From contig JAHBUH010000024.1 in the NCBI GenBank assembly GCA_019638185.1, forward strand, positions 1 through 64,000: a stretch of DNA of 64,000 nt. The letters run 5' to 3'. The notes beneath the pieces are model-generated. The model was not told the origin of the DNA. It did no database searches and worked only from the letters and a program-made list of their open reading frames with translations. Shown piece by piece: positions 1 through 28,545 of the stretch (the stretch's first letter is position 1; each line of letters begins with the position of its first letter). The stretch comes from Leadbetterella sp. (lineage in GTDB: Bacteria > Bacteroidota > Bacteroidia > Cytophagales > Spirosomataceae). The position numbers and the translations under genes were made by a program.

Positions 1-86
1 ACTTCCCCGGCCTTTTGGCCGGCTGGATGGATACCTTTTGAGGCCAGGTAATCCACTATTTTAAACTGTTCATTTAATTCGCTCAT
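1..86 (-). CDS. Partial gene, N-terminus only (possible CHC2-type primase of the element)
   Basis: A reading frame opens with ATG at 86 and runs off the left edge, giving 28 residues that begin MSELNEQFKIVDYLASKG. The pattern 'IVDYLASKGIHP' followed by a short polar stretch resembles the start of CHC2 zinc-finger primases found next to helicases on Bacteroidota mobile elements, but the zinc ligands would lie outside the window, so this is only a suggestion. It lies downstream of, and on the same strand as, the SF3 helicase, separated from it by the TGGAACA repeat block. Confidence 0.4.
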   Translation of the reverse strand, partial: MSELNEQFKIVDYLASKGIHPAGQKAGE

Positions 87-401
87 AGTGCTTTTTCTTT
101 TAGCGGAAAATTGTACTGCATATAATACACGGGGAGTTACCCCAAAAAAATGGAACATTTGGAACACCCTATTTTTTGGAACAAATGGAACAGTATTGGA
201 ACATATTTTGGAACACTTTTTAAATTGTAAATAGGTAATAATAAATAGAATAATATACTTTGTTCCAAATGTTCCATTTTTTTAATGATTTTTTCAAACA
301 TCATATTTTTCGACTTTTTTTATTGTTTTTCAATAAATATTCTGTTCCACTGTTTTTGCCATTTTTTGGAACATTTGCCTTTTTTGAAATTTTTCGTTGT
401 A
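87..401. other. Non-coding block with ten TGGAACA repeats (candidate origin or operator)
   Basis: This AT-rich stretch between the helicase gene and the partial left-edge gene holds ten exact TGGAACA heptamers. Plus-strand copies start at 151, 160, 177, 186, 197, 209 and 367; inverted copies start at 261, 270 and 343. Three pairs are spaced by 9 bp, and the pair at 151-166 is an exact inverted repeat of the pair at 261-276. A small GGGG/CCCC hairpin lies at 131-143. Clustered short repeats beside replication genes are typical of iteron origins or of multi-site operators; which applies here is inferred. The short plus-strand frame across the block looks fortuitous. Confidence 0.75.
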
Positions 402-1718
402 TTATTCCAAGATTGAAAATTTGTCTCTGTCAAATGAATAAAAGGTATTCGGACTTCCTGAATCTCCTAAATAATTATCTTTTATAGCTTCCATATCATA
501 TTTAAAAGGGGAAAAGTATTTATACCGTCCTTTTTTATTAAGTTTTACACCCAATTCATTTTCTACGGCATTCTTTAACTGAATAGAAGTAGTTGAGGCT
601 TTCACCCTCTTAGTTTGTATTAGCTCATTCAAAAGCTCTGCTGCCGAAAAATTTAAAACTTGTCTTTCGGAAAAGATTTCAAAGCCATAGTTTAAGAGGT
701 CTAATACTGCTTTAGAAACGCCGGAAACACTATTCCTGTAATAGAGCTCTAATTGATCAGTTTTGTAGGCTTCAAACGGGAAATACATACGGGAGGCTTC
801 CTGTTTATATTTAAGCTCTCTGTTTTTCAGGAAGTATAGGAAGGCCGGTATTTCCTCCTTTATCTTAGTCTCGATATCCGGATCATCATTTAGCCCGGAC
901 GTCTGTAATGTGGGTACTTTAAATACTGCAAACCGGTTTTCTCCTTTTCCGATGTTCAGGGCTTTGCCTTCCTGGTTACTTATAAAAATATGCTTGCCGA
1001 AATATTCTATTTGGTATTGTTTCCGGCCCTTTTCATTAATGGTAATTTTTCCGGTTTCTGTACTGAACCGTTTTATCATTTCCATAATGAGGTCATTATT
1101 CAATGATGCCTCATCCACTACTACCAAAAGTTTGGGCGCCCAAATGGCATTGAAATCAGAGGATAATTCTGAATTGCCTATCTTGATGGCGTTTTCCTGG
1201 AAAATGTATCTGATTAAATTCCCAAAGGTACTTTTACCCGTATTCCTTTCTTTTGATTCCAAAAGTAGTATTGGGAGCCGTCGGGTAGGTTCCAGATAAA
1301 GAAGCTGAAAATAGTCCAGGATAAATTCATAGTGCGCATTAAAGAGGTGTTTCAATAGAGTAGAAATATTTTCAAAGTTGCCCTTTTGGGGTTCGTGAGT
1401 GATTTTGTTGTATTGATTGTAATGCCCTCCTATTTCCTGCTTATAGTCAAGATGGCTCGGTACATTACAGAAGCCCTCAAATTTATTTATTTCAGTAAAG
1501 AAACTACCGGTATCATCCTTTACTGTTTGCCGGCTTCGGGGGACTAAGAGCTGATAAAAATTACCATCTTTGCCCGGGCGTTCGATGTTCTTAAAATATT
1601 CATCTCCTACCCTTATATGTTTCGCAGACTCTGATTTCTTCCTGTCGTTGCTATTTGTATTATCCTTCCTTTCTTTGGGAGCGTCTACCCTGGTTAATAC
1701 ATCTGTTAGATTTGCCAT
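402..1718 (-). CDS. SF3-type primase-helicase (DUF5906-like) of an integrated element
   Basis: A 438-residue ATPase of the viral/plasmid superfamily-3 helicase kind, expected to unwind the element's own DNA at its origin. Visible motifs: a variant Walker A ending NTGKST at about 155-164 (the first glycine of GxxxxGKS is replaced, as is usual in this family), Walker B LLVVVDE at 197-203, the SF3 sensor asparagine in FISN near 248, and an arginine in GENRF near 262. The first 40 residues are polar and Lys-rich. It is the last complete member of a minus-strand cluster that starts at the integrase, and the heptamer array lies just past its stop codon. Assignment to the fold is good; the exact subfamily is from memory of the motif pattern. 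Confidence 0.8.
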   Translation of the reverse strand: MANLTDVLTRVDAPKERKDNTNSNDRKKSESAKHIRVGDEYFKNIERPGKDGNFYQLLVPRSRQTVKDDTGSFFTEINKFEGFCNVPSHLDYKQEIGGHYNQYNKITHEPQKGNFENISTLLKHLFNAHYEFILDYFQLLYLEPTRRLPILLLESKERNTGKSTFGNLIRYIFQENAIKIGNSELSSDFNAIWAPKLLVVVDEASLNNDLIMEMIKRFSTETGKITINEKGRKQYQIEYFGKHIFISNQEGKALNIGKGENRFAVFKVPTLQTSGLNDDPDIETKIKEEIPAFLYFLKNRELKYKQEASRMYFPFEAYKTDQLELYYRNSVSGVSKAVLDLLNYGFEIFSERQVLNFSAAELLNELIQTKRVKASTTSIQLKNAVENELGVKLNKKGRYKYFSPFKYDMEAIKDNYLGDSGSPNTFYSFDRDKFSILE

Positions 1719-1730
1719 AATCTGATAATT

Positions 1731-1967
1731 TTAGGATAAGTTTATTACTGTCTTTTTCAGGGCTAAAAGTTCATCCAGTACATACCTGGCCATCAAAGAA
1801 CCGGAGGGGGATACTGTCCCCGTTAATATCTTATCTATTGCGGTTTGAATGATTTCAAGTAATATTTTTCGGGTTTTTAAGGCGGTTTCCTGGTCCGGAA
1901 CCGGGATAAAAAGAACCTCTATTGAGGCTCTTTTTATTTGTGTAAGTTCGCTTTTTAATGCTTCCAT
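1731..1967 (-). CDS. Small hypothetical element protein
   Basis: A 78-residue, mostly helical protein (MEALKSELTQIKRASIEV...) with no motif I recognise. It ends 12 bases before the helicase start and begins 2 bases after the stop of the preceding small gene, so it is very probably co-transcribed with them. Its position between integrase and helicase matches the accessory small genes of phage-satellite or integrative elements. The N-terminal heptad pattern could support oligomerisation, but no function can be assigned. Confidence 0.6.
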   Translation of the reverse strand: MEALKSELTQIKRASIEVLFIPVPDQETALKTRKILLEIIQTAIDKILTGTVSPSGSLMARYVLDELLALKKTVINLS

Positions 1968-1969
1968 TG

Positions 1970-2254
1970 TTATCGAATTATACCGGAATCGTCCAGCCTC
2001 TCAATTCCATTAATGCAGTCAAGGAGGTTGGCTAGGTCTAAAAAATAACTGTAATAATTACTACGGGTATTAATTTCCGCGTCATCGCAGAAAGAAGACG
2101 ACAACCAGCCGTGAAAAATGTTGCGCAGGAACTCCGACGTAAACCCGCCGTCTTGTCTTATTTCCTCTATTATTTCCAATATATTTGCTTCCCTTGAATT
2201 TTCTGTTATTATTTTCCGTATTCTACTTGCCATTATTTTTAAAATTTGTGCCAT
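1970..2254 (-). CDS. Small hypothetical element protein
   Basis: A 94-residue predicted helical protein beginning MAQILKIMASRIRK. A second ATG eight codons in (MASRIRK) is an equally good start. No family recognised. It is tightly packed with the downstream 78-residue gene (2-base gap) and lies 45 bases beyond the integrase stop, so it belongs to the same minus-strand transcription unit of the element. Confidence 0.6.
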   Translation of the reverse strand: MAQILKIMASRIRKIITENSREANILEIIEEIRQDGGFTSEFLRNIFHGWLSSSFCDDAEINTRSNYYSYFLDLANLLDCINGIERLDDSGIIR

Positions 2255-2298
2255 GTGGTATAGAAATTAATTGCTATACCTGCAGGCGGGTTTGAAAA

Positions 2299-3531
2299 TT
2301 ATTTTAGTTTTGATTTTAGAGCCTCCATTGCATCAAATGCCCGGTTGGGGGCTTGCTTTGCTAAGTAATATTTATATGCCATTTTGGCTGTTTTATGGCC
2401 CACTATAACCCCCATGCTGTCTACGTCCATTCCTTTATCAAATGCCAGGTTACAAAATGTTTTTCGGGCAAAACTGGACGTTAACGGTTTCTTTATTTTA
2501 ACAATAGCAGCTATTTCTTTCAATACCCGGTTATAGTGTTGATTGGTTGGGATAGGGAAACAATATCTAGGTTTACGCCCCCTGTACCGGTTTAAAATAT
2601 CTAAAGCCAAAGGAAGCAAGGGAATAAAAACCTCAGTGCCGGTTTTGCTTCTTTGTTGTGATATCGCTGGCCCCCGGTCAGTCTCTACAATTTCAGTTTC
2701 TAAAAGCGCTTCAAGGTCGCAGTAGTTGAGACTCGTAAGGCACTGGAAAGCAAAGAAATCCCTTATTTCGTGATAGGCAGGGGTTTCAAATACAAATGCA
2801 GCCAGGTTATTTAATTCCGGCTCTGAAAGATGGTTTTTAGCGTAATTTTTTGCCCTGGGCAACTTATGGCCCTGAAAAGGATTATGTTCCTGTAGCTTCT
2901 TTTGACGGGCGATCTCATAGGCTCTTTTCCCAAATTCCAGCCGCTTACGGATGGTCTCAGGTTCAAACCCTTTGGCAGTTTGAAAGTATTCTATCATCCT
3001 GGAAGCATCATAAAAACTAATATCTTCCAGTCGTATAGCCGGGTTTCTTACTGTACGTTCAAAGTAGTTCAGTACGTCAGAATACACTTTTTCGTAGCGT
3101 TTGAACGTCTTTTCTGACTTGATTTTTCCGGAAGTGTATTTGGCTTTCGCTTCATTGAAAGCAAGCCCTAAAAGGTTCTGAAAAGTGGGCTTACAGTCTA
3201 TGATCCCTTTTCCGGATAGGACCAATTGCAGGATGCTTTCAAGAATTATCGGGGAATCTATTACCCGGGCCTTTGAAGCATTCTGCTCTATTTCTGCTTT
3301 GATTGACTGGATCAATGCGCTGCCGGCATCGTCTCCTTTTATTGTTTGGGTCTTATTGAATAGTGTACCTGGTGTGATGGTGACTCCCAGGCTTTTTTCC
3401 AGCTTTTGACCCTCATAGGTCAGGCGGATATAAAGCACAGGGCCACGCTCGAAGAAATTAATGCCCAGTTTTGAGGCTTTTCGAGGCTTACTATTTGATT
3501 TGTAGCCTATTGCTGTTAACTTTGTATTCAT
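2299..3531 (-). CDS. Tyrosine recombinase / integrase with non-canonical catalytic box I
   Basis: Site-specific recombinase of about 410 residues: an arm-binding/SAM-like N-terminal half and a C-terminal catalytic domain. Recognisable are the beta-hairpin lysine in QQRSKTG (K296), the second arginine in SSFARKTF (R356), GHKTAKMAYKYY with His379 and nucleophile Tyr388. Unusually, the first catalytic arginine, expected in a TGLRYSDL-like motif, is Asn in TSLNYCDLE (N269), and the His of HxxR is Ser (S353). Arg-I replacement is known for the CTnDOT integrase IntDOT. I place the start at the ATG giving MNTKLTAIGYK (3531); an upstream ATG at 3567 adds 12 residues and abuts a hairpin. It is presumably responsible for integration and excision of this element. 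Confidence 0.85.
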   Translation of the reverse strand: MNTKLTAIGYKSNSKPRKASKLGINFFERGPVLYIRLTYEGQKLEKSLGVTITPGTLFNKTQTIKGDDAGSALIQSIKAEIEQNASKARVIDSPIILESILQLVLSGKGIIDCKPTFQNLLGLAFNEAKAKYTSGKIKSEKTFKRYEKVYSDVLNYFERTVRNPAIRLEDISFYDASRMIEYFQTAKGFEPETIRKRLEFGKRAYEIARQKKLQEHNPFQGHKLPRAKNYAKNHLSEPELNNLAAFVFETPAYHEIRDFFAFQCLTSLNYCDLEALLETEIVETDRGPAISQQRSKTGTEVFIPLLPLALDILNRYRGRKPRYCFPIPTNQHYNRVLKEIAAIVKIKKPLTSSFARKTFCNLAFDKGMDVDSMGVIVGHKTAKMAYKYYLAKQAPNRAFDAMEALKSKLK

Positions 3532-3569
3532 AATCTTTTGAGTTGTTAGTTTTGAACAATTTGCCATGA

Positions 3570-3599
3570 GGCCGGTACTGCGAATACCGGCCTTTTTTT
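3570..3599. terminator. Hairpin before integrase (GGCCGGTA stem)
   Basis: GGCCGGTA at 3570-3577 pairs perfectly with TACCGGCC at 3585-3592. A run of seven T follows on the plus strand, although the genes on both sides are on the minus strand. On the minus strand it follows the stop of the 60-residue gene and lies against the upstream ATG at 3567, which favours the internal integrase start at 3531. It could block plus-strand read-through into the element. Confidence 0.55.
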
Positions 3600-3780
3600 A
3601 ATCTTCCAATTCCTCCAATGGGTCAAGTCCAACACTGTACAAGTCTTTAATGTGGTCTAACCATTCGGCCACGTCTTTTCGTAGTTCCTTGTTGTCCAGG
3701 TATGTGGTGTTCAGGCCCTCACCGTCAAGCGACTTGCATACATACAATTCGATTGCCTTAATTAATTCGGATTTTGTCAT
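3598..3780 (-). CDS. Small acidic hypothetical element protein
   Basis: A 60-residue acidic protein (MTKSELIKAIELYVCKSL...) with no recognised domain. It lies between the XRE repressor gene (13-base gap) and the integrase on the minus strand, a position where elements often keep an excisionase or regulator. However, it has no visible HTH and is acidic rather than basic, so an excisionase role is not supported by the sequence. Confidence 0.55.
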   Translation of the reverse strand: MTKSELIKAIELYVCKSLDGEGLNTTYLDNKELRKDVAEWLDHIKDLYSVGLDPLEELED

Positions 3781-3793
3781 AATTTATTGATAT

Positions 3794-4012
3794 TTAAAAG
3801 TTTACTAAATCTTTGGGGGATACTCCCAGCCATTGGGCTATCCGTTGGAGTTCGTCTAATCGGGGTTGTTTTTGGTTTCGGACGTATTTGCCAAACTCTA
3901 TTTTTGTAATGCGCAATGTGTTCTTGTATATTGATTGTGATACTCCCGGTTTTTCCTTTCCGAATTTTTTCAACACTTCGTTTCTGATAGAATTAGAAAT
4001 GACTTTATCCAT
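3794..4012 (-). CDS. XRE/Cro-type small DNA-binding protein
   Basis: A 72-residue protein whose C-terminal two thirds form a Cro/C1-type helix-turn-helix: NTLRITKIEFGKYVRNQK then LDELQRIAQWLGVSPKDL, with the typical 'WLGVSPxDL' end. I choose the ATG at 4012 (MDKVISNS) rather than the upstream ATG at 4039. The upstream codon lies inside a minus-strand TAnnTTTG box (4044-4037) and so would precede the transcription start. The gene is divergent from the 165-residue XRE gene and they share an 87-115 bp control region, the usual layout of a lysogeny-type switch. Confidence 0.75.
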   Translation of the reverse strand: MDKVISNSIRNEVLKKFGKEKPGVSQSIYKNTLRITKIEFGKYVRNQKQPRLDELQRIAQWLGVSPKDLVNF

Positions 4013-4029
4013 AAAGAGATTAATTATTT

Positions 4030-4126
4030 TATGCCACAAATGTATAAATTAGCTTTTTAATATGCAATAATTAAATAGTTAAAATATGCCATAAAATTAA
4101 TTTTCGACTATATCTAAATTTGTAGT
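4030..4126. promoter_or_regulatory. Divergent promoter/operator region of the two XRE genes
   Basis: Plus strand: TAAATTTG at 4115-4122 matches the Bacteroidota -7 box TAnnTTTG and ends only 4 bases before the ATG at 4127, so the plus-strand transcript should be leaderless or nearly so. Minus strand: TACATTTG (complement of 4037-4044). Repeated TATGCCA at 4030-4036 and 4085-4091, with the related TATGCAA at 4061-4067, are candidate operators for one or both repressors. Confidence 0.6.
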
Positions 4127-4624
4127 ATGAATAAGATATATGCAATTGTTAAGGCAATACGTACAGAAAAGGGGTTGTCCCAGGAAGAGGTAGCGGAAAG
4201 GATAGGGATGACCCAGGGGAATTATGGCCGATTGGAAAGGGGACAAACTCAACTGACTATTGAGAGGCTGGAGCAGCTTGCAGATGTTTTTGGGATGTCT
4301 GTTTCATCTATAATGAGTTATGAAATCGGGGAAAGTATAAATAAGGAAGATTTTCAATACTACTTTAACCTTTGTCAAAAGCTCGAAAAACAAATAGCTA
4401 AGTTAAAAAGTGATATTGAGTACTATGATGAGGAGAGCTCTAACGATTTTTCCAAATTGGAAAAGGCTAAGGAATTACACAAGAATGAAGTAAAATCTCT
4501 TAAAGAGAAAATTATTCTGAAAGATGAAATAATAAAGGAGAGAGATAAAACAATAGAAGATAAGAACAGAATGATTTCTATCCTTGAAAAGGCCTTTGAT
4601 AAATTAGGAGGTCAAAATAATTAG
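4127..4624 (+). CDS. XRE-family repressor with C-terminal coiled coil
   Basis: A 165-residue regulator. Residues 5-62 are a clear HTH_3 domain (GLSQEEVAERIGMTQGNYGRLERG, then LEQLADVFGM). Residues about 80-160 are a long charged coiled coil (Lys/Glu-rich heptads, ending in KDEIIKERDKTIEDKN), probably for dimerisation. This HTH plus coiled-coil architecture is common in Bacteroidota accessory regions. It is divergent from the small XRE gene and is the outermost plus-strand gene of the element. A TAnnTTTG box ends 4 bases before the start codon, implying leaderless translation. Confidence 0.8.
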   Translation: MNKIYAIVKAIRTEKGLSQEEVAERIGMTQGNYGRLERGQTQLTIERLEQLADVFGMSVSSIMSYEIGESINKEDFQYYFNLCQKLEKQIAKLKSDIEYYDEESSNDFSKLEKAKELHKNEVKSLKEKIILKDEIIKERDKTIEDKNRMISILEKAFDKLGGQNN

Positions 4625-4650
4625 TAACTTTGTGAGTTTTCCATTCTATT

Positions 4651-4950
4651 TTAGGATGTAAAGCATATTTGGGCTTCGTTGCAGGCAATTTCGCCGGTGG
4701 GTGTACACCTGATCAACCCAAATATAAAAACACCGGCAAAAGGCAGTAGGCTTAAAGCGTTTCGGACGTTAGGGATAGGTGAAATAGGCATAATACCCGT
4801 TAAGTAACTGTTTTTGAAATACGTTGCACCCGAAACGGTTTCGGACGTTGGAGAGGACACCCCCGCGGTGTATGATGTTCGTCGGGTGGACGTATTTTTA
4901 TTTTACCCTTATGTCCTAAAAGTAAAATAAGAGTTTTGTTATTTTACTTT
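4651..4950. other. Unexplained structured non-coding block
   Basis: No convincing gene lies between 4625 and 5022. The block contains two interleaved perfect complements: ATATTTGGG 4665-4673 with CCCAAATAT 4717-4725, and GCCGGTG 4693-4699 with CACCGGC 4731-4737. This is a pseudoknot order. There is also the palindrome GGTGTACACC at 4700-4709, the 12-mer GTTTCGGACGTT twice (4759-4770 and 4838-4849), and the palindrome CGAAACGGTTTCG at 4831-4843. The end of the block has a 12-bp hairpin at 4919-4950. It may be a structured RNA, a recombination site or a cassette boundary. A 69-codon minus-strand frame across it is judged spurious. Confidence 0.5.
4919..4950. terminator. 12-bp hairpin, terminator-like
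   Basis: AAAGTAAAATAA (4919-4930) pairs perfectly with TTATTTTACTTT (4939-4950) around an 8-base loop. An additional TTATTTTAC at 4898-4906 can pair with the same GTAAAATAA, so two alternative hairpins compete. It lies about 70 bases upstream of the antitoxin gene. Confidence 0.45.
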
Positions 4951-5022
4951 CTGCTATATTTTCTATATTGAATTTTCGTAGGCAGAATTACGTTATAGAG
5001 TTGAATTAAAATTTCAAATACA

Positions 5023-5157
5023 ATGGTAAAATCAAACAAAAAAGCGACTAAGGCCGAAAAGCCGGAAGAGCCTAAAAAGCTGTCAAAGGCAGGTGAATGG
5101 TTAAGAAGTGGTAAATCACTTGGTTATATAGTTGATATGAAAGCAGTTCTAAAGTGA
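5023..5157 (+). CDS. Small antitoxin of a VapBC-like pair
   Basis: A 44-residue frame (ATG at 5023; sequence ends GYIVDMKAVLK) directly upstream of the PIN toxin. Its TGA stop overlaps the toxin's GTG start in the sequence GTGA, a classic toxin-antitoxin coupling. The N-terminal half is very Lys/Glu-rich and probably disordered. The C-terminal half (LSKAGEWLRSGKSLGYIVDMKA) is compact enough to wrap a toxin groove. There is no obvious AbrB, MetJ or Phd DNA-binding fold, so autoregulation may be weak or absent. The antitoxin role is inferred from position and overlap. Confidence 0.7.
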   Translation: MVKSNKKATKAEKPEEPKKLSKAGEWLRSGKSLGYIVDMKAVLK

Positions 5158-5573
5158 GCCGATACCTGTTAGATACCAATATTTTAGTATTCTTGGTTAC
5201 CGGCGAAGCTGATGAGGTTCACAAAGATGTCAGGCTTATTATAGATGATTATAATAGTCACTTGGCAGCAAGCTCGGTTTCTTTTGCTGAACTTATCCAG
5301 CTTCACAGGATAGGTAAAATCCGGCTAAAGAAACAGGGTATTAACGAGGCTATAGAAACACTGATTCACACAATAGGGGTTCAGCTGGTGCCTTTTACAG
5401 ATAAGCATATAAATACCCTCGCTAACCTGGAAACAATAGACGGTCATAACGATCCCTTTGACCACGCAATAATAGCACACGCCATTACCGACCGCTATAC
5501 CCTTATTTCTTCAGATAGTAAATTCAAGCATTATAAAGATCAGAACCTGAATTTTGTTTTCAATAAGCGGTAA
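5154..5573 (+). CDS. vapC: PIN-domain ribonuclease toxin (VapC family)
   Basis: A 139-residue PIN domain, full length for a VapC. The acidic metal-binding residues are visible: Asp in YLLDTNIL (D7), Glu in SFAELIQ (about 46), Asp in HNDPFDHAIIAHA (about 99-102), and Asp in LISSDSKFKHY near 122. The family cleaves RNA (often initiator tRNA or rRNA) using Mg2+. Translation starts at GTG 5154, overlapping the antitoxin stop by four bases. The pair sits just outside the XRE-controlled element, where it could stabilise the region. A GAAA-tetraloop terminator lies 200 bases downstream. Confidence 0.88.
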   Translation: MSRYLLDTNILVFLVTGEADEVHKDVRLIIDDYNSHLAASSVSFAELIQLHRIGKIRLKKQGINEAIETLIHTIGVQLVPFTDKHINTLANLETIDGHNDPFDHAIIAHAITDRYTLISSDSKFKHYKDQNLNFVFNKR

Positions 5574-5772
5574 GTTTTTACTACAGTCCTGAAAAATATT
5601 CGCACCTGTAAAGTGCTTATTTTTAGCAATTTATATATTTAAAGGTGTTGGGTGGAATTTGGCAATTGTCCGCACTTTTTACGACAGTCAATAATAGGCC
5701 TGTAGTTAAATGGCTAATAATCAATCAAGTATTCAAAATATTCCGCGCCCAGCTTCGGGAGCTTGAAAATGA

Positions 5773-5802
5773 AAGAGTTACATGAAAATGTAGCTCTTTT
5801 TT
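5773..5802 (+). terminator. GAAA-tetraloop terminator
   Basis: AAGAGTTACAT (5773-5783), loop GAAA, ATGTAGCTCTT (5788-5798), then a T run. The 11-bp stem has one G-U pair. It terminates the vapBC transcript. Confidence 0.8.
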
Positions 5803-5864
5803 GTTTTTATTTGCACTACATTTTGCCTAACATTCCGGATTAATTTGATCATACAAAACCTTCT

Positions 5865-5910
5865 TAACTTTGTTGAAAACGCGAGATTCAAGAAGAATCT
5901 CGCGTTTTTT
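5865..5910 (+). promoter_or_regulatory. Promoter followed at once by a terminator-like hairpin (leader attenuator?)
   Basis: TAACTTTG (5865-5872) with TTTG at 5844-5847 fits the Bacteroidota promoter layout. The predicted start near 5878 coincides with a perfect 12-bp hairpin: AACGCGAGATTC 5878-5889, loop AAGAA, GAATCTCGCGTT 5895-5906. A T run to 5910 follows, about 25 bases upstream of the Fic gene. The hairpin could end transcripts prematurely or cap the mRNA 5' end. Confidence 0.55.
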
Positions 5911-5934
5911 ATATAGATTTAGAATGAGAAAATA

Positions 5935-7239
5935 TTGATTACGGTGATAGAGAAAGCTCCAAAGCCTGTAGAAGGGGAAAAAATCTTTTCATTATTGGTA
6001 GATTACCAGTTAGATGGGTCATTAACGAAAATGCAGGATGAGTACCTGTATTGGGACAAGATTAGGTACAGGGCAAAAGACTGTACACCTTTGGAGTTTT
6101 GGAGCGTAGTAAAGCTGTTCAGGAGAATCAGAGGGAATAGTGTCAGGTTTGGGAAGCATAACTTTCAATATGTGATCACGGATTACTTGCAAAGGGCATT
6201 ACACCAGTTTGATATGCATATTGGCGGTACATTGGGAAGTAATATCGGTATTGCTGAAACGGATAAAACGAAGTTTGTGATTAGCTCAATAATGGAAGAA
6301 GCCATCTCCAGTAGCCAGATGGAAGGGGCAAGTACCACCAGGAAGAAAGCGAAAGAAATGATTCAGCAGGATAAAAGGCCGAAGAATAAATCGGAACAAA
6401 TGATCATGAATAACTACATAACCATGAAGTATATTGTTCAGCATAAAAGTGAAGATCTGACAGCAGAAAGGTTATTGTATATCCATAAACTGATTACAAA
6501 CAGTACATTAGATGATGCAGCAGACGAAGGACGATTCCGGGAAAACGATGAAGTGCATGTAATTCATTCCAATAGCGAAATCGTTCATACGCCCCCTTTG
6601 CAGAAAGAATTAGGTCAGTTAATGGAGGATTTATGTACTTTCTTTAATACGTGTAGTTCGGAATTTATTCATCCGATTGTCAAGGGATGCATCATTCATT
6701 TTATGCTGGGCTGGATTCACCCTTTTTCTGACGGTAACGGACGTATGGCCAGGGCTATTTTTTATTGGTATATGTTAAAAAAGGGGTATTGGCTTACAGA
6801 ATATTTGTCTATTTCAAGGATCATAAAGGATACAAAAGCGCAGTATGAAAGAGCTTACCTGTATTCTGAAACAGACGATAATGATTTAAGCTACTTTATC
6901 ACCTACCATATAAAGACAATGGAAAAGGCGTATGATGCTTTAAAAGAATACATTAACCGGAAACAAAAAGAAGTGGTCCAGGCTGCAAAATTCATGAAAA
7001 TTCCAGGTGTGAATGAAAGGATGGCACAAATATTAAAAATCGTGCACGATGACCAGGATAGGATATTAAGCTCCAAAGAAATTGAATCCAGGTTTAATAT
7101 GTCAAATTTCACGGCGAGGGCAGATTTAAAATCGCTGGTTGAATTGGGGTTTTTAGAAATCATCCAGGTCAATAAGTTGAAGCAAAGTTTTATCAAATCA
7201 CAGAATTTTGAAAAAACACTTAAAAAATATTCCTTGTAA
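5935..7239 (+). CDS. Fic-family AMP-transferase with own inhibitory motif and C-terminal wHTH
   Basis: A 434-residue Fic protein that would transfer AMP (or another nucleotide moiety) to a target protein hydroxyl. The N-terminal domain carries the inhibitory helix motif SSQMEGA (S126...E130 G131), the class II arrangement in which Glu blocks ATP gamma-phosphate binding. The Fic core motif HPFSDGNGRMAR (262-273) is intact, including the catalytic His262. The C-terminal 65 residues form a winged helix (SKEIESRFNMSNFTARADLKSL). No ATG is available near the start: I use TTG at 5935, with GTG at 5944 as alternative. It is alone in its transcription unit and may be a stress- or defence-type gene. 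Confidence 0.88.
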   Translation: MITVIEKAPKPVEGEKIFSLLVDYQLDGSLTKMQDEYLYWDKIRYRAKDCTPLEFWSVVKLFRRIRGNSVRFGKHNFQYVITDYLQRALHQFDMHIGGTLGSNIGIAETDKTKFVISSIMEEAISSSQMEGASTTRKKAKEMIQQDKRPKNKSEQMIMNNYITMKYIVQHKSEDLTAERLLYIHKLITNSTLDDAADEGRFRENDEVHVIHSNSEIVHTPPLQKELGQLMEDLCTFFNTCSSEFIHPIVKGCIIHFMLGWIHPFSDGNGRMARAIFYWYMLKKGYWLTEYLSISRIIKDTKAQYERAYLYSETDDNDLSYFITYHIKTMEKAYDALKEYINRKQKEVVQAAKFMKIPGVNERMAQILKIVHDDQDRILSSKEIESRFNMSNFTARADLKSLVELGFLEIIQVNKLKQSFIKSQNFEKTLKKYSL

Positions 7240-7406
7240 AAGCCGCTTCCAGGCGGTTTGAAGCCCGGTAACCTTACTTTTTTTCACATAATTTTCCTTT
7301 CGCCAATAGTTTTATTTGATTTTATTACTATTTTTAGGTGTTTTGGTACAAAACCTATAGGTGGGTATATCTGTAGTTAGCGTAAATCTTTAATATTGAA
7401 TGCATT

Positions 7407-9257
7407 ATGTCTGGTATCAGATTAAAAAAAGAACAGGAGGAGACCATTAAGATCACCAAACGAGAAACCCTTCAGCCCATCCTTTTTGAAGTAGCATGGG
7501 AAGTCTGTAACCAGGTAGGAGGTATTTATACCGTGATCCGTTCCAAAGTGCCGTCTATGGTAGAGGAATGGGGAGATAATTACTGTCTGATAGGACCCTA
7601 TTTTCCGCAAACGGCGAGTATCGAGTTTGAACGACTGGATCACGATCAGTCGATTTTTTCAAAAGTGGCCGCCCACCTGCGGGCGCAGGGAATAGACGCC
7701 ATGTACGGGCGCTGGCTGGTAACCGGAAACCCGAATATCATCCTGGTGGATTTTAACCAGGCTCTGGGGAAGATCGATGCCCTGAAGTACGATCTTTGGG
7801 AAAAGCACCGGGTGTCTACGTTAAACATTGAGCCGCTGGTGAACAGTGTGATTGCTTTCGGAAGCATGGTGAAGGCGTATATTACGGCCTTTGCCGAGGC
7901 TAAGCCCAAAAGCCAGGAGTGCATTGTGCATTTTCACGAATGGATGGCGTCTACGGCGCTCCTGGACCTGAAGAAGGATAATGTTAACGTGGCCACGGTT
8001 TTCACCACGCATGCTACCATGCTGGGAAGGTATATTGCCGGTAACGTGGATGACTTCTATGAGAGCCTCCCCAGTTACGACTGGGAGAAGGAAGCCCAGC
8101 ATTACGGTATAGAAGCACAGGCTACTATTGAGAGGCTTTCTGCCCAGTATTGTAATGTTTTAACTACGGTTTCCGAGGTTACCGCCCGGGAATGTGAAGT
8201 GTTTTTCGGAAGAACGTGTGACCTGATCCTGCCTAACGGGCTGAACATTACTCGTTTTGCTGCTACGCATGAGTTTCAGAACCTGCACCTGAAGTATAAG
8301 CAGAAGATCAACCAGTTTGTGATGGGGCATTTCTTCCAGAGCTATTCCTGGGATCTGGATAATACGCTTTACTTTTTCACTTCGGGGCGCTATGAATTTA
8401 AGAACAAAGGTTATGACCTGACCCTGGAGGCCCTGAAGCGTTTAAACTTCAAGATCGTGCAGTCGGGCCTGGATATTACGGTAGTGATGTTCATTATCAC
8501 CCGTAACCCGGTATTTTCCATTGATCCGCAGGTGCTGCAGTCGCGGGCTGTGATGGAGGAGATTGAAGAAACCTGTAAGTCTATCGAAAACGAGGTGGGT
8601 GAACACCTGTTCCATGCTTCGGCTTCGAACGAGGATACTACCATGCCTGATCTTAACCAGTTTGTGAGCGAGTATTGGAGGCTGCGTCTGCGCAGGACCA
8701 TCCAGACGTGGAAGACCAAGACCCTGCCCCGGACCGTTACCCATATTTTGAAGGAAAAAGACGATATCGTGCGGTTCTTTGAGCGCACTAACCTCCAGAA
8801 TCACCAGCAGGACCGGGTGAAGTTTGTATACCACCCTGATTTTATTTCTTCTACGAATCCGCTGTTTGGCCTGGAATACAGCCAGTTTGTGAGAGGCTGT
8901 CACCTGGGCATTTTCCCGAGCTATTATGAGCCGTGGGGATATACGCCGCTGGAGTGTATTGTACGGGGTATTCCTACCATTACCAGTGACCTGTCAGGCT
9001 TCGGAGATTATATCCAGGGCATTATGTCTGATCACGAAAACGTGGGAATTTACGTGGCTAACCGGAAGGAATACAGTTTTGACCGGGCGGCGGAGCAATT
9101 AGCCGATATGATGTTCAAGTTTGCTACCCTGAGCCGGAGAGAGCGGATCATGCAGCGGAACCGGGTAGAGAATATTTCCGATGTGTTTGACTGGACTAAC
9201 CTCCGGTCTTATTATGACACCGCACATGACCTGGCGATCAAGAAAAAAGGAAAGTAA
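7407..9257 (+). CDS. Glycogen synthase, GT3 family (eukaryote-type)
   Basis: A 616-residue cytoplasmic glycosyltransferase making the alpha-1,4-glucan chain of glycogen, probably from UDP-glucose. It matches the animal/fungal GYS family (GT3), not bacterial GlgA. The N-terminus has ILFEVAWEVCNQVGGIYTV and WGDNYCLIGPYFPQ, and the C-terminal half has FPSYYEPWGYTPLEC (about 503-518) with the E-x7-E type catalytic acid, then LSGFGDY. The length is a little below the eukaryotic enzymes, and the regulatory Ser-rich C-terminal tail is absent. GT3 enzymes are known in Bacteroidota. It stands alone between the Fic gene and a strong terminator; the neighbouring genes are not glycogen genes. Confidence 0.9.
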   Translation: MSGIRLKKEQEETIKITKRETLQPILFEVAWEVCNQVGGIYTVIRSKVPSMVEEWGDNYCLIGPYFPQTASIEFERLDHDQSIFSKVAAHLRAQGIDAMYGRWLVTGNPNIILVDFNQALGKIDALKYDLWEKHRVSTLNIEPLVNSVIAFGSMVKAYITAFAEAKPKSQECIVHFHEWMASTALLDLKKDNVNVATVFTTHATMLGRYIAGNVDDFYESLPSYDWEKEAQHYGIEAQATIERLSAQYCNVLTTVSEVTARECEVFFGRTCDLILPNGLNITRFAATHEFQNLHLKYKQKINQFVMGHFFQSYSWDLDNTLYFFTSGRYEFKNKGYDLTLEALKRLNFKIVQSGLDITVVMFIITRNPVFSIDPQVLQSRAVMEEIEETCKSIENEVGEHLFHASASNEDTTMPDLNQFVSEYWRLRLRRTIQTWKTKTLPRTVTHILKEKDDIVRFFERTNLQNHQQDRVKFVYHPDFISSTNPLFGLEYSQFVRGCHLGIFPSYYEPWGYTPLECIVRGIPTITSDLSGFGDYIQGIMSDHENVGIYVANRKEYSFDRAAEQLADMMFKFATLSRRERIMQRNRVENISDVFDWTNLRSYYDTAHDLAIKKKGK

Positions 9258-28486: not shown

Positions 28487-28545
28487 GCTCATAGCTCATA
28501 GCTCATAGCTCATAGCTCATAGCTCATAGCTCATAGCTCATAGCT
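28487..28545. repeat. Tandem heptamer GCTCATA, 8.4 copies
   Basis: Eight exact copies of GCTCATA run from 28487 to 28542 plus three bases. The array starts inside the last codons of mazG (stop codon 28540-28538) and extends into the gap before msrC, so the array supplies the mazG stop codon. Confidence 0.97.

What the first reader, a model, noticed from the sequence alone, without database searches (positions are those of the whole stretch)
151..373. Ten TGGAACA heptamers in paired and inverted order beside an SF3 helicase
Direct count: six direct copies (151, 160, 177, 186, 197, 209), two inverted (261, 270), one inverted (343), one direct (367). Pairs are 9 bp apart, and the 16-base pair at 151-166 is the exact reverse complement of 261-276. 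The block lies between the helicase gene and a partial gene that may be a primase, so an iteron-type replication origin is the leading reading; a multi-site operator is the alternative.
Basis: partly seen in the sequence, partly recalled or inferred. Interest (0 to 1): 0.7.

Follow-up and report, generated by a model that had tools for sequence, protein, structure and literature searches.

The report
Repeat-array replication origin of small island
The ten short repeats are very probably the DNA start site at which a small chromosomal island begins copying itself, read by the helicase made by the neighbouring gene; the design is already known from phage-like islands, but here it is traced through a new bacterial group in which the repeat 'word' changes together with the helicase.

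Summary
The origin reading holds. Among 222 genomes of the family, 12 carry the array motif, at 14 places, each beside a relative of this helicase. Thirteen arrays share one layout: inverted iteron sets around a 35-36 or 45-48 bp core of about 15% G+C, 3' of the helicase gene. More distant relatives carry other words there (TGCAACA, TGTAACA, TGTAACT, TTGGAAA, TGATGAG and more), and the word follows the helicase tree: 16 changes against 43.4 when shuffled. The helicase folds like the NrS-1 helicase domain and, more weakly, SaPI PriRep, with a C-terminal segment that I read as a winged helix. Two complete relatives are 7.4 and 9.5 kb islands at tRNA genes. This is the organisation published for PICI/SaPI origins (PMC6092414, PMC7581432, passages): a new member of a known kind. 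A multi-site operator is disfavoured. Which protein domain reads the word is not shown, and replication could not be tested.

The parts
151..215 (+). Iteron set A: six direct TGGAACA copies (151, 160, 177, 186, 197, 209)
   Evidence: corresponding sets in 12 relatives
216..260 (.). Central 45-bp core, 13% G+C, the likely melting region; 12 relatives have 35-36 or 46-48 bp, pooled 15% G+C
261..276 (-). Iteron set B: two inverted copies (261, 270); exact reverse complement of 151-166
343..349 (-). Outlying inverted copy of set B
367..373 (+). Outlying direct copy next to the helicase stop
402..1718 (-). DUF5906 SF3-type AAA+ helicase, 438 aa; proposed initiator; residues about 333-430 modelled as helices and strands that I read as a winged helix
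1..86 (-). First 28 codons of a DnaG-type (CHC2/Toprim) primase, cut by the contig end
1731..1967 (-). Small ORF between helicase and integrase, 78 aa, no accepted Pfam match
1970..2254 (-). Small ORF between helicase and integrase, 94 aa, no Pfam match
2299..3567 (-). Tyrosine recombinase/integrase, 422 aa
   Evidence: Phage_integrase 26.1 bits, just under the 27.1 cut-off
3794..4039 (-). Small HTH-like protein, excisionase-like by position only
   Evidence: HTH_26 20.1 bits, under the cut-off of 22
4127..4624 (+). XRE-type repressor, transcribed divergently
   Evidence: L035 5306-5800 has the same type

Best explanation
The block is the replication origin of a small integrative island. The island's SF3-type helicase binds the TGGAACA iterons, probably through its C-terminal winged-helix-like segment. 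It assembles on the two inverted iteron sets, perhaps as two opposed hexamers, and melts the A+T-rich core between them. The primase encoded on the far side of the array then primes the opened strands, and host polymerase copies the excised circle. Shown here: the array, its conserved layout, its link with the helicase, and the change of word along the helicase tree. Inferred: which domain reads the word, double-hexamer loading, melting, excision and copying.
For: Link both ways in 222 family genomes: 14 array places in 12 genomes, all beside a helicase match; the pattern read backwards gave none. Layout kept at about 42-52% helicase identity. Other words at the same place: 95 of 103 relatives with a usable 3' flank have a heptamer repeated at least 4 times there, 73 of 103 strongly so; in 32 of 35 loci no control window of the same locus scores as high. 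L048 keeps the layout with 11 copies reading TGCAACA. Words follow the helicase tree: 16 changes against 43.4 shuffled. Spacing between the inverted sets peaks at 34-38 and 45-48 bp, about one helical turn apart. Fold matches to the NrS-1 helicase domain, D5/E5 and SaPI5 PriRep. The same position is annotated as origin in phage Sfi21 and described for SaPI, PICI and SCCmec elements.
Against: No binding or replication experiment. C-terminal identity does not predict the word better than the ATPase domain (30 of 46 against 32 of 46 nearest neighbours share a word), so the reading domain is not pinned down. 8 of 103 relatives show no repeated heptamer and 22 only a weak one; 10 of those 22 score below the 95th percentile of the control windows. 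Bacteroides phage ARB14 shows no evident array after its VapE gene (by eye). In L035 a methyltransferase gene lies between helicase and array. Of 106 viral loci with dense TGGAACA arrays, 81 have no large gene starting or ending beside the array, and DUF5906 was found in 4 of 15 viral contigs tested, two of them already known to have a helicase at the array, so in some phages something else may read the word. The window's own island is incomplete.
Confidence: 0.85

Rival explanations
1. Multi-site operator: a repressor, such as the island's XRE protein, binds the heptamers and controls the primase promoter.
For: The array lies 5' of the primase gene in the window and in several close relatives; a repeated stretch lies just before the primase start (by eye).
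Against: Of 71 strong-word relatives counted, 31 have no primase recognised within 4 kb downstream, 8 of them with helicases over 600 aa, yet the array still follows the helicase (some flanks are short and the profile was built from 7 close primases, so primases may have been missed). No heptamer lies in the XRE/integrase divergent region or elsewhere from 374 to 8607. Inverted sets around an A+T-rich core are typical of origins. The word follows the helicase tree; a repressor tree was not built.
Confidence: 0.07
2. Origin, but read by a protein other than the helicase, such as a small island or host DNA-binding protein, with the helicase recruited afterwards.
For: The same heptamer and spacing occur beside unrelated protein families (D5/DUF5906, VapE, DUF927, DUF3631, AAA_25) and in viral contigs without such a gene nearby; the C-terminal segment does not track the word better than the ATPase domain.
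Against: The word changes together with the helicase lineage within one bacterial family, and differs between two islands of one genome (G101: TGGAACA and TGCAACA), which a fixed host protein would not explain. In SaPI Rep and SCCmec Cch2 the helicase's C-terminal domain recognises the site (PMC7581432, passages).
Confidence: 0.1
3. Recombination or partition site: integrase arm sites, or a centromere.
For: Inverted short repeats, and an integrase upstream in the same direction.
Against: Two complete relatives have their att-like repeats at tRNA genes kilobases away (L038, L044). No partition gene was recognised among the ORFs listed for those two islands, though two small ORFs there have no family match. 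The array abuts the helicase, not the integrase.
Confidence: 0.02

Closest known systems
PICI / SaPI pri-rep-ori module (PMC6092414 and PMC7581432, passages; PMC10111431, passages)
   Same: Origin immediately 3' of the replication-initiator gene; two iteron sets flanking an A+T-rich region; primase in the same module; divergent repressor; integrase; short island at a specific attachment site; DUF5906 is counted among PICI replication genes; fold match to SaPI5 PriRep.
   Different: Here the origin sits between helicase and a separate DnaG-type primase; hosts are Bacteroidota; no terminase or capsid gene recognised in two complete relatives; no helper phage known.
Streptococcus phage Sfi21 origin (record NC_000872, annotated misc_feature)
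   Same: Non-coding origin directly 3' of the putative primase gene, with a short word in both orientations around an A+T-rich centre (by eye).
   Different: Different word (GTAACT), phage replicon; annotation not tested here.
SCCmec Cch2 origin (PMC7581432, passages)
   Same: Helicase binds specific repeats just downstream of its own gene through its C-terminal domain.
   Different: Only three 5-nt iterons (AAGTG); the primase is a polymerase pair, not DnaG-type.
NrS-1 phage primase-polymerase helicase domain (6k9c, 6k9e, 6lrb)
   Same: Closest solved relative by sequence and fold.
   Different: Part of a larger primase-polymerase; its origin was not examined.
Bacteroides plasmid pBUN1 region
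   Same: Integrase, DUF5906-type helicase, array, Toprim primase in the same order; array word TGATGAA, 6 copies.
   Different: Carries a MobV relaxase and other cargo; helicase about 38% identical over 72% of the query.

Membership tests
SaPI/PICI-type replication origin | Origin lies immediately 3' of the replication-initiator helicase gene | tested here: met
   Window array ends at 373, helicase stop at 402; 14 of 14 TGGAACA places in the family lie beside the helicase, one of them (G102) with a methyltransferase gene between
SaPI/PICI-type replication origin | Two sets of iterons flank an A+T-rich region | tested here: met
   inverted sets, core 9-23% G+C in 13 of 13 arrays read
SaPI/PICI-type replication origin | Initiator helicase binds the iterons | not testable with these tools
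   Only the joint change of word and helicase on the tree
SaPI/PICI-type replication origin | Rep-ori segment drives autonomous replication | not testable with these tools
   Experiment needed
PICI (as an island family) | Integrase, divergent repressor and pri/rep/ori module in a short island at a specific att site | tested here: met
   both ends seen in L038 and L044 only, where XRE, integrase and primase were named by likeness to L035 and the window
PICI (as an island family) | Packaging or phage-interference genes and induction by a helper phage | tested here: inconclusive
   No terminase or capsid gene recognised among the ORFs of L038 and L044 between the repeats, two small ORFs without any match; induction not testable; window island incomplete. 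Not filed as a PICI.
Classical iteron-plasmid origin | DnaA boxes beside the iterons | tested here: not met
   No exact TTWTNCACA in 1-7279; boxes with mismatches not sought
SF3/D5-like AAA+ helicase | Family match and fold | tested here: met
   DUF5906 69.5 bits against cut-off 27.6; NrS-1 helicase domain E 1.4e-16, D5/E5 from 3.8e-9

The most novel reading that the evidence does not exclude
There is one origin grammar shared across self-loading helicases of phages, islands and plasmids: a short word with a conserved half, in inverted sets at helically phased spacings around a 36- or 46-bp core. The word drifts in concert in all copies as the helicase evolves, and the same word (TGGAACA) with the same spacing has been reached by unrelated helicase families across several phyla, so that origin specificity could be predicted and tested from sequence.
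Probability: 0.35. Interest if true: 0.6.

Novelty: new member of a known kind. Interest (0 to 1): 0.42.

Why it matters
[quoted passage not shown] A like organisation, a repeated word in both orientations 3' of the helicase gene, is found here in Spirosomaceae islands, two Bacteroides plasmids and many viral contigs, with a word that changes with the helicase. That gives a natural series of initiator-origin pairs for asking how a helicase learns a new origin word. One genome (G101) holds two islands whose words differ by one letter; two others (G165, G170) hold two islands with the same word.

Tried and rejected
Single-protein scans of genome contigs and viral contigs confirmed no relative; the alignment scan of viral contigs found 101, of which the best 80 were kept. 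I first read the many TGGAACA arrays in other bacteria and viruses as a sign of one universal reader. One search corrected this: of 9 annotated phages read by eye around their helicase gene, 8 have an array of some other word just after it (ARB14 has none evident), so the pattern search had merely selected carriers of this word. The C-terminal segment as specificity determinant: not supported over the ATPase domain. Att sites of the window's own island: the other end is missing; homology with nine same-genus genomes starts at window 7313 or later (1.5 kb upstream of the gene was available) and a search for the far side gave only a 45-base match. The rest of the primase was not found in the own genome (one weak 65-residue match in a 634-codon frame). 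Rfam: nothing up to E 0.1 in 1-2400. My first translation of the partial gene was out of frame and was redone. Rows dropped: L030 and L049 (split helicase, two loci of one place) from word counts, 11 of 114 candidate loci (1 without an ORF, 10 cut at the 3' end); L020 and its duplicate L054 were not; one search used 46 of 73 strong-word loci after removing near-copies; one search left out L042, a near-copy of L038. In one search three of 35 loci (L037, L051, L332) had control windows scoring as high, many loci had only 9-17 control windows, and no observed score exceeded the 99.9th percentile of the 2809 pooled controls (65.7, set by tandem repeats in a few loci); the observed median was 35.0 against a control 95th percentile of 10.9. 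The tree has long branches, the window's among them, and near-copies that inflate the clustering.

Literature: ten searches. No title listed was about these islands or about TGGAACA iterons, but lists were capped (20 of 59, 8 of 283, 12 of 58) and most subscription journals are not held, so absence from print is not shown. Papers seen: PMC6092414, PMC7145576, PMC7581432 and PMC10111431, in passages only. Foley 1998 on Sfi21, Ubeda 2007/2012 on SaPI and the P4 iteron are recalled or cited second-hand, not read.

Full report
CHECK. The 63.6 kb after the block hold nine more, scattered, so about 0.03 would be expected in the block. The paired form TGGAACANNTGGAACA occurs three times in the whole own genome, all here. 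The window is the first 64,000 of 67,022 bases of a contig. The gene beyond the array is cut by the contig end after 28 codons, which match the start of relatives' primases; the one such primase scanned, that of L035, has CHC2 and Toprim domains.

RELATIVES WITH THE SAME WORD. The helicase was sought in 222 genomes of the same family: 44 have a match at E 1e-10 or better. The array pattern was sought independently in the same 222: 12 genomes, 14 places, and each place lies beside a helicase match; the pattern read backwards gave none. None of the nine other genomes of the same genus has either. Collection titles of contigs of the same lengths name Runella limosa, Runella sp., Dyadobacter sp. 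LHD-138 and Emticicia aquatica, so the family is probably Spirosomaceae (recalled taxonomy). Thirteen arrays, the window's included, were read in the helicase's direction: direct copies, a gap of 44-101, a close pair, a core of 35-36 bp (ten) or 45-48 bp (three), then inverted copies, most of them 4-5 or 0-2 bp apart, and in 12 of 13 a last copy or pair 10-32 bp further on. The core is 9-23% G+C. The two core lengths differ by about one helical turn. In L035 the array is 1 kb from the helicase, with a methyltransferase gene between.

RELATIVES WITH OTHER WORDS. Where the helicase is more distant, the place downstream of its stop carries another repeated word: TGCAACA (L048), TGTAACA (L050), TGTAACT (L051-L053), TTGGAAA (L046, a close relative), TGATGAG or TGATGAA (mostly genomes of the Dyadobacter group, and Bacteroides plasmids). 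In 32 of 35 loci no 530-bp control window elsewhere in the locus scored as high; three had such windows, and many loci had few controls. With the viral-contig relatives added, 95 of 103 helicases with a usable flank have a heptamer repeated at least four times there; 73 of 103 are strong, and 10 of the rest score no better than the upper range of control windows. All 57 distinct strong arrays of other words have both orientations. On a FastTree tree of 73 strong-word helicases the twelve word classes, assigned by a simple rule of mine, need 16 changes against 43.4 when shuffled; near-copies inflate this and several branches are long. After removing near-copies, 32 of 46 nearest neighbours share a word while 20% of all pairs do. 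L048 has the TGGAACA layout with 11 copies of TGCAACA, and it lies in the same genome (G101) as a TGGAACA island. G165 and G170 each hold two islands with the same word, so co-residents need not differ.

THE ISLAND. Two relatives show both ends: L038 has 49-nt direct repeats 9,451 bp apart, the first overlapping the end of a tRNA-Glu gene; L044 has 34-nt repeats (91% alike) about 7.4 kb apart at a tRNA-Asp. Between them lie an XRE repressor, integrase, helicase, array and primase (named by likeness to L035 and the window) and a little cargo: an HD-CE/ATPase protein, a DUF2442 protein and an ORF without match in L038, and a RimK-like ATP-grasp protein and an ORF without match in L044. No relaxase, terminase or capsid gene was recognised. 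The window shows the same order as far as the contig goes.

THE HELICASE. Pfam DUF5906. The model from 34 sequences has mean pLDDT 87. Best solved matches are the NrS-1 helicase domain, then D5/E5-type and SaPI PriRep structures; by sequence only NrS-1. The C-terminal part (about 333-430) has helices and strands at pLDDT mostly about 90; I read it as a winged helix, but ran no separate search with it.

HOW IT WORKS. [quoted passage not shown] This is inference.

OTHER ARRAYS. The same heptamer array is found elsewhere. In genome contigs 49 loci and in viral contigs 106 loci (both scans capped) have at least six heptamers in 400 bp. An ORF of at least 280 aa ends within 150 bp of the array in 34 of 49 and 20 of 106; in 1 and 5 only a 5' end lies there; 14 and 81 have neither. 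Of the ORFs scanned with Pfam, many are D5/DUF5906, VapE, DUF927, DUF3631 or AAA_25 proteins, and several have no match. The spacing between the inverted sets peaks at about 34-38 and 45-48 bp in the three sets, with lesser groups at other lengths. Eight of nine annotated phages read by eye have arrays of other words just after their helicase gene, among them Sfi21, whose record marks the place as its origin. So TGGAACA is one word of a general system.

VERDICT. The origin reading is well supported and the kind is known: PMC6092414 (passages) says that PICI origins lie immediately 3' of the initiator gene, always with two iteron sets flanking an A+T-rich region in those mapped, and that a PICI rep-ori segment supports replication. 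What is added is a new host group, carriers not recognised as PICIs, the spacing rules, and the change of word together with the helicase.

Noticed in passing
window 28487-28545: Eight head-to-tail copies of a 7-bp unit (GCTCATA in one register).
   Followed up: no
IMG/VR loci such as L185, L201, L249: Dense TGGAACA arrays with the same spacing but no large gene starting or ending beside them (81 of 106 viral loci). DUF5906 found in 4 of 15 viral contigs tested, two of which (L180, L232) already had a helicase gene at the array. Terminases of this group resemble those of Pelagibacter phages.
   Followed up: partly
L037 204-7006: A second set of mobile genes beside the TGGAACA island: a VapE protein (814 aa), an integrase and an ORF at 764-1315 that looks like a small terminase by eye.
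   Followed up: no
L036 and L048 (genome G101): Two islands in one genome whose iteron words differ by one letter (TGGAACA, TGCAACA).
   Followed up: partly
L331 (plasmid pBUN1): The same integrase-helicase-array-primase order with a MobV relaxase, next to an annotated blaMUN-1 gene.
   Followed up: no
window 5154-7239: PIN-domain ORF and a Fic protein (PADLOC SoFic) beside the island. In the nine same-genus genomes the 1.5 kb upstream of the next gene does not match this stretch. Possibly cargo.
   Followed up: partly
window about 88-110 and the same place in relatives: A recurring stretch like CCGCTAAAAGAAAA just before the primase start in many of the arrays printed (by eye); perhaps the primase promoter or ribosome-binding region.
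   Followed up: no
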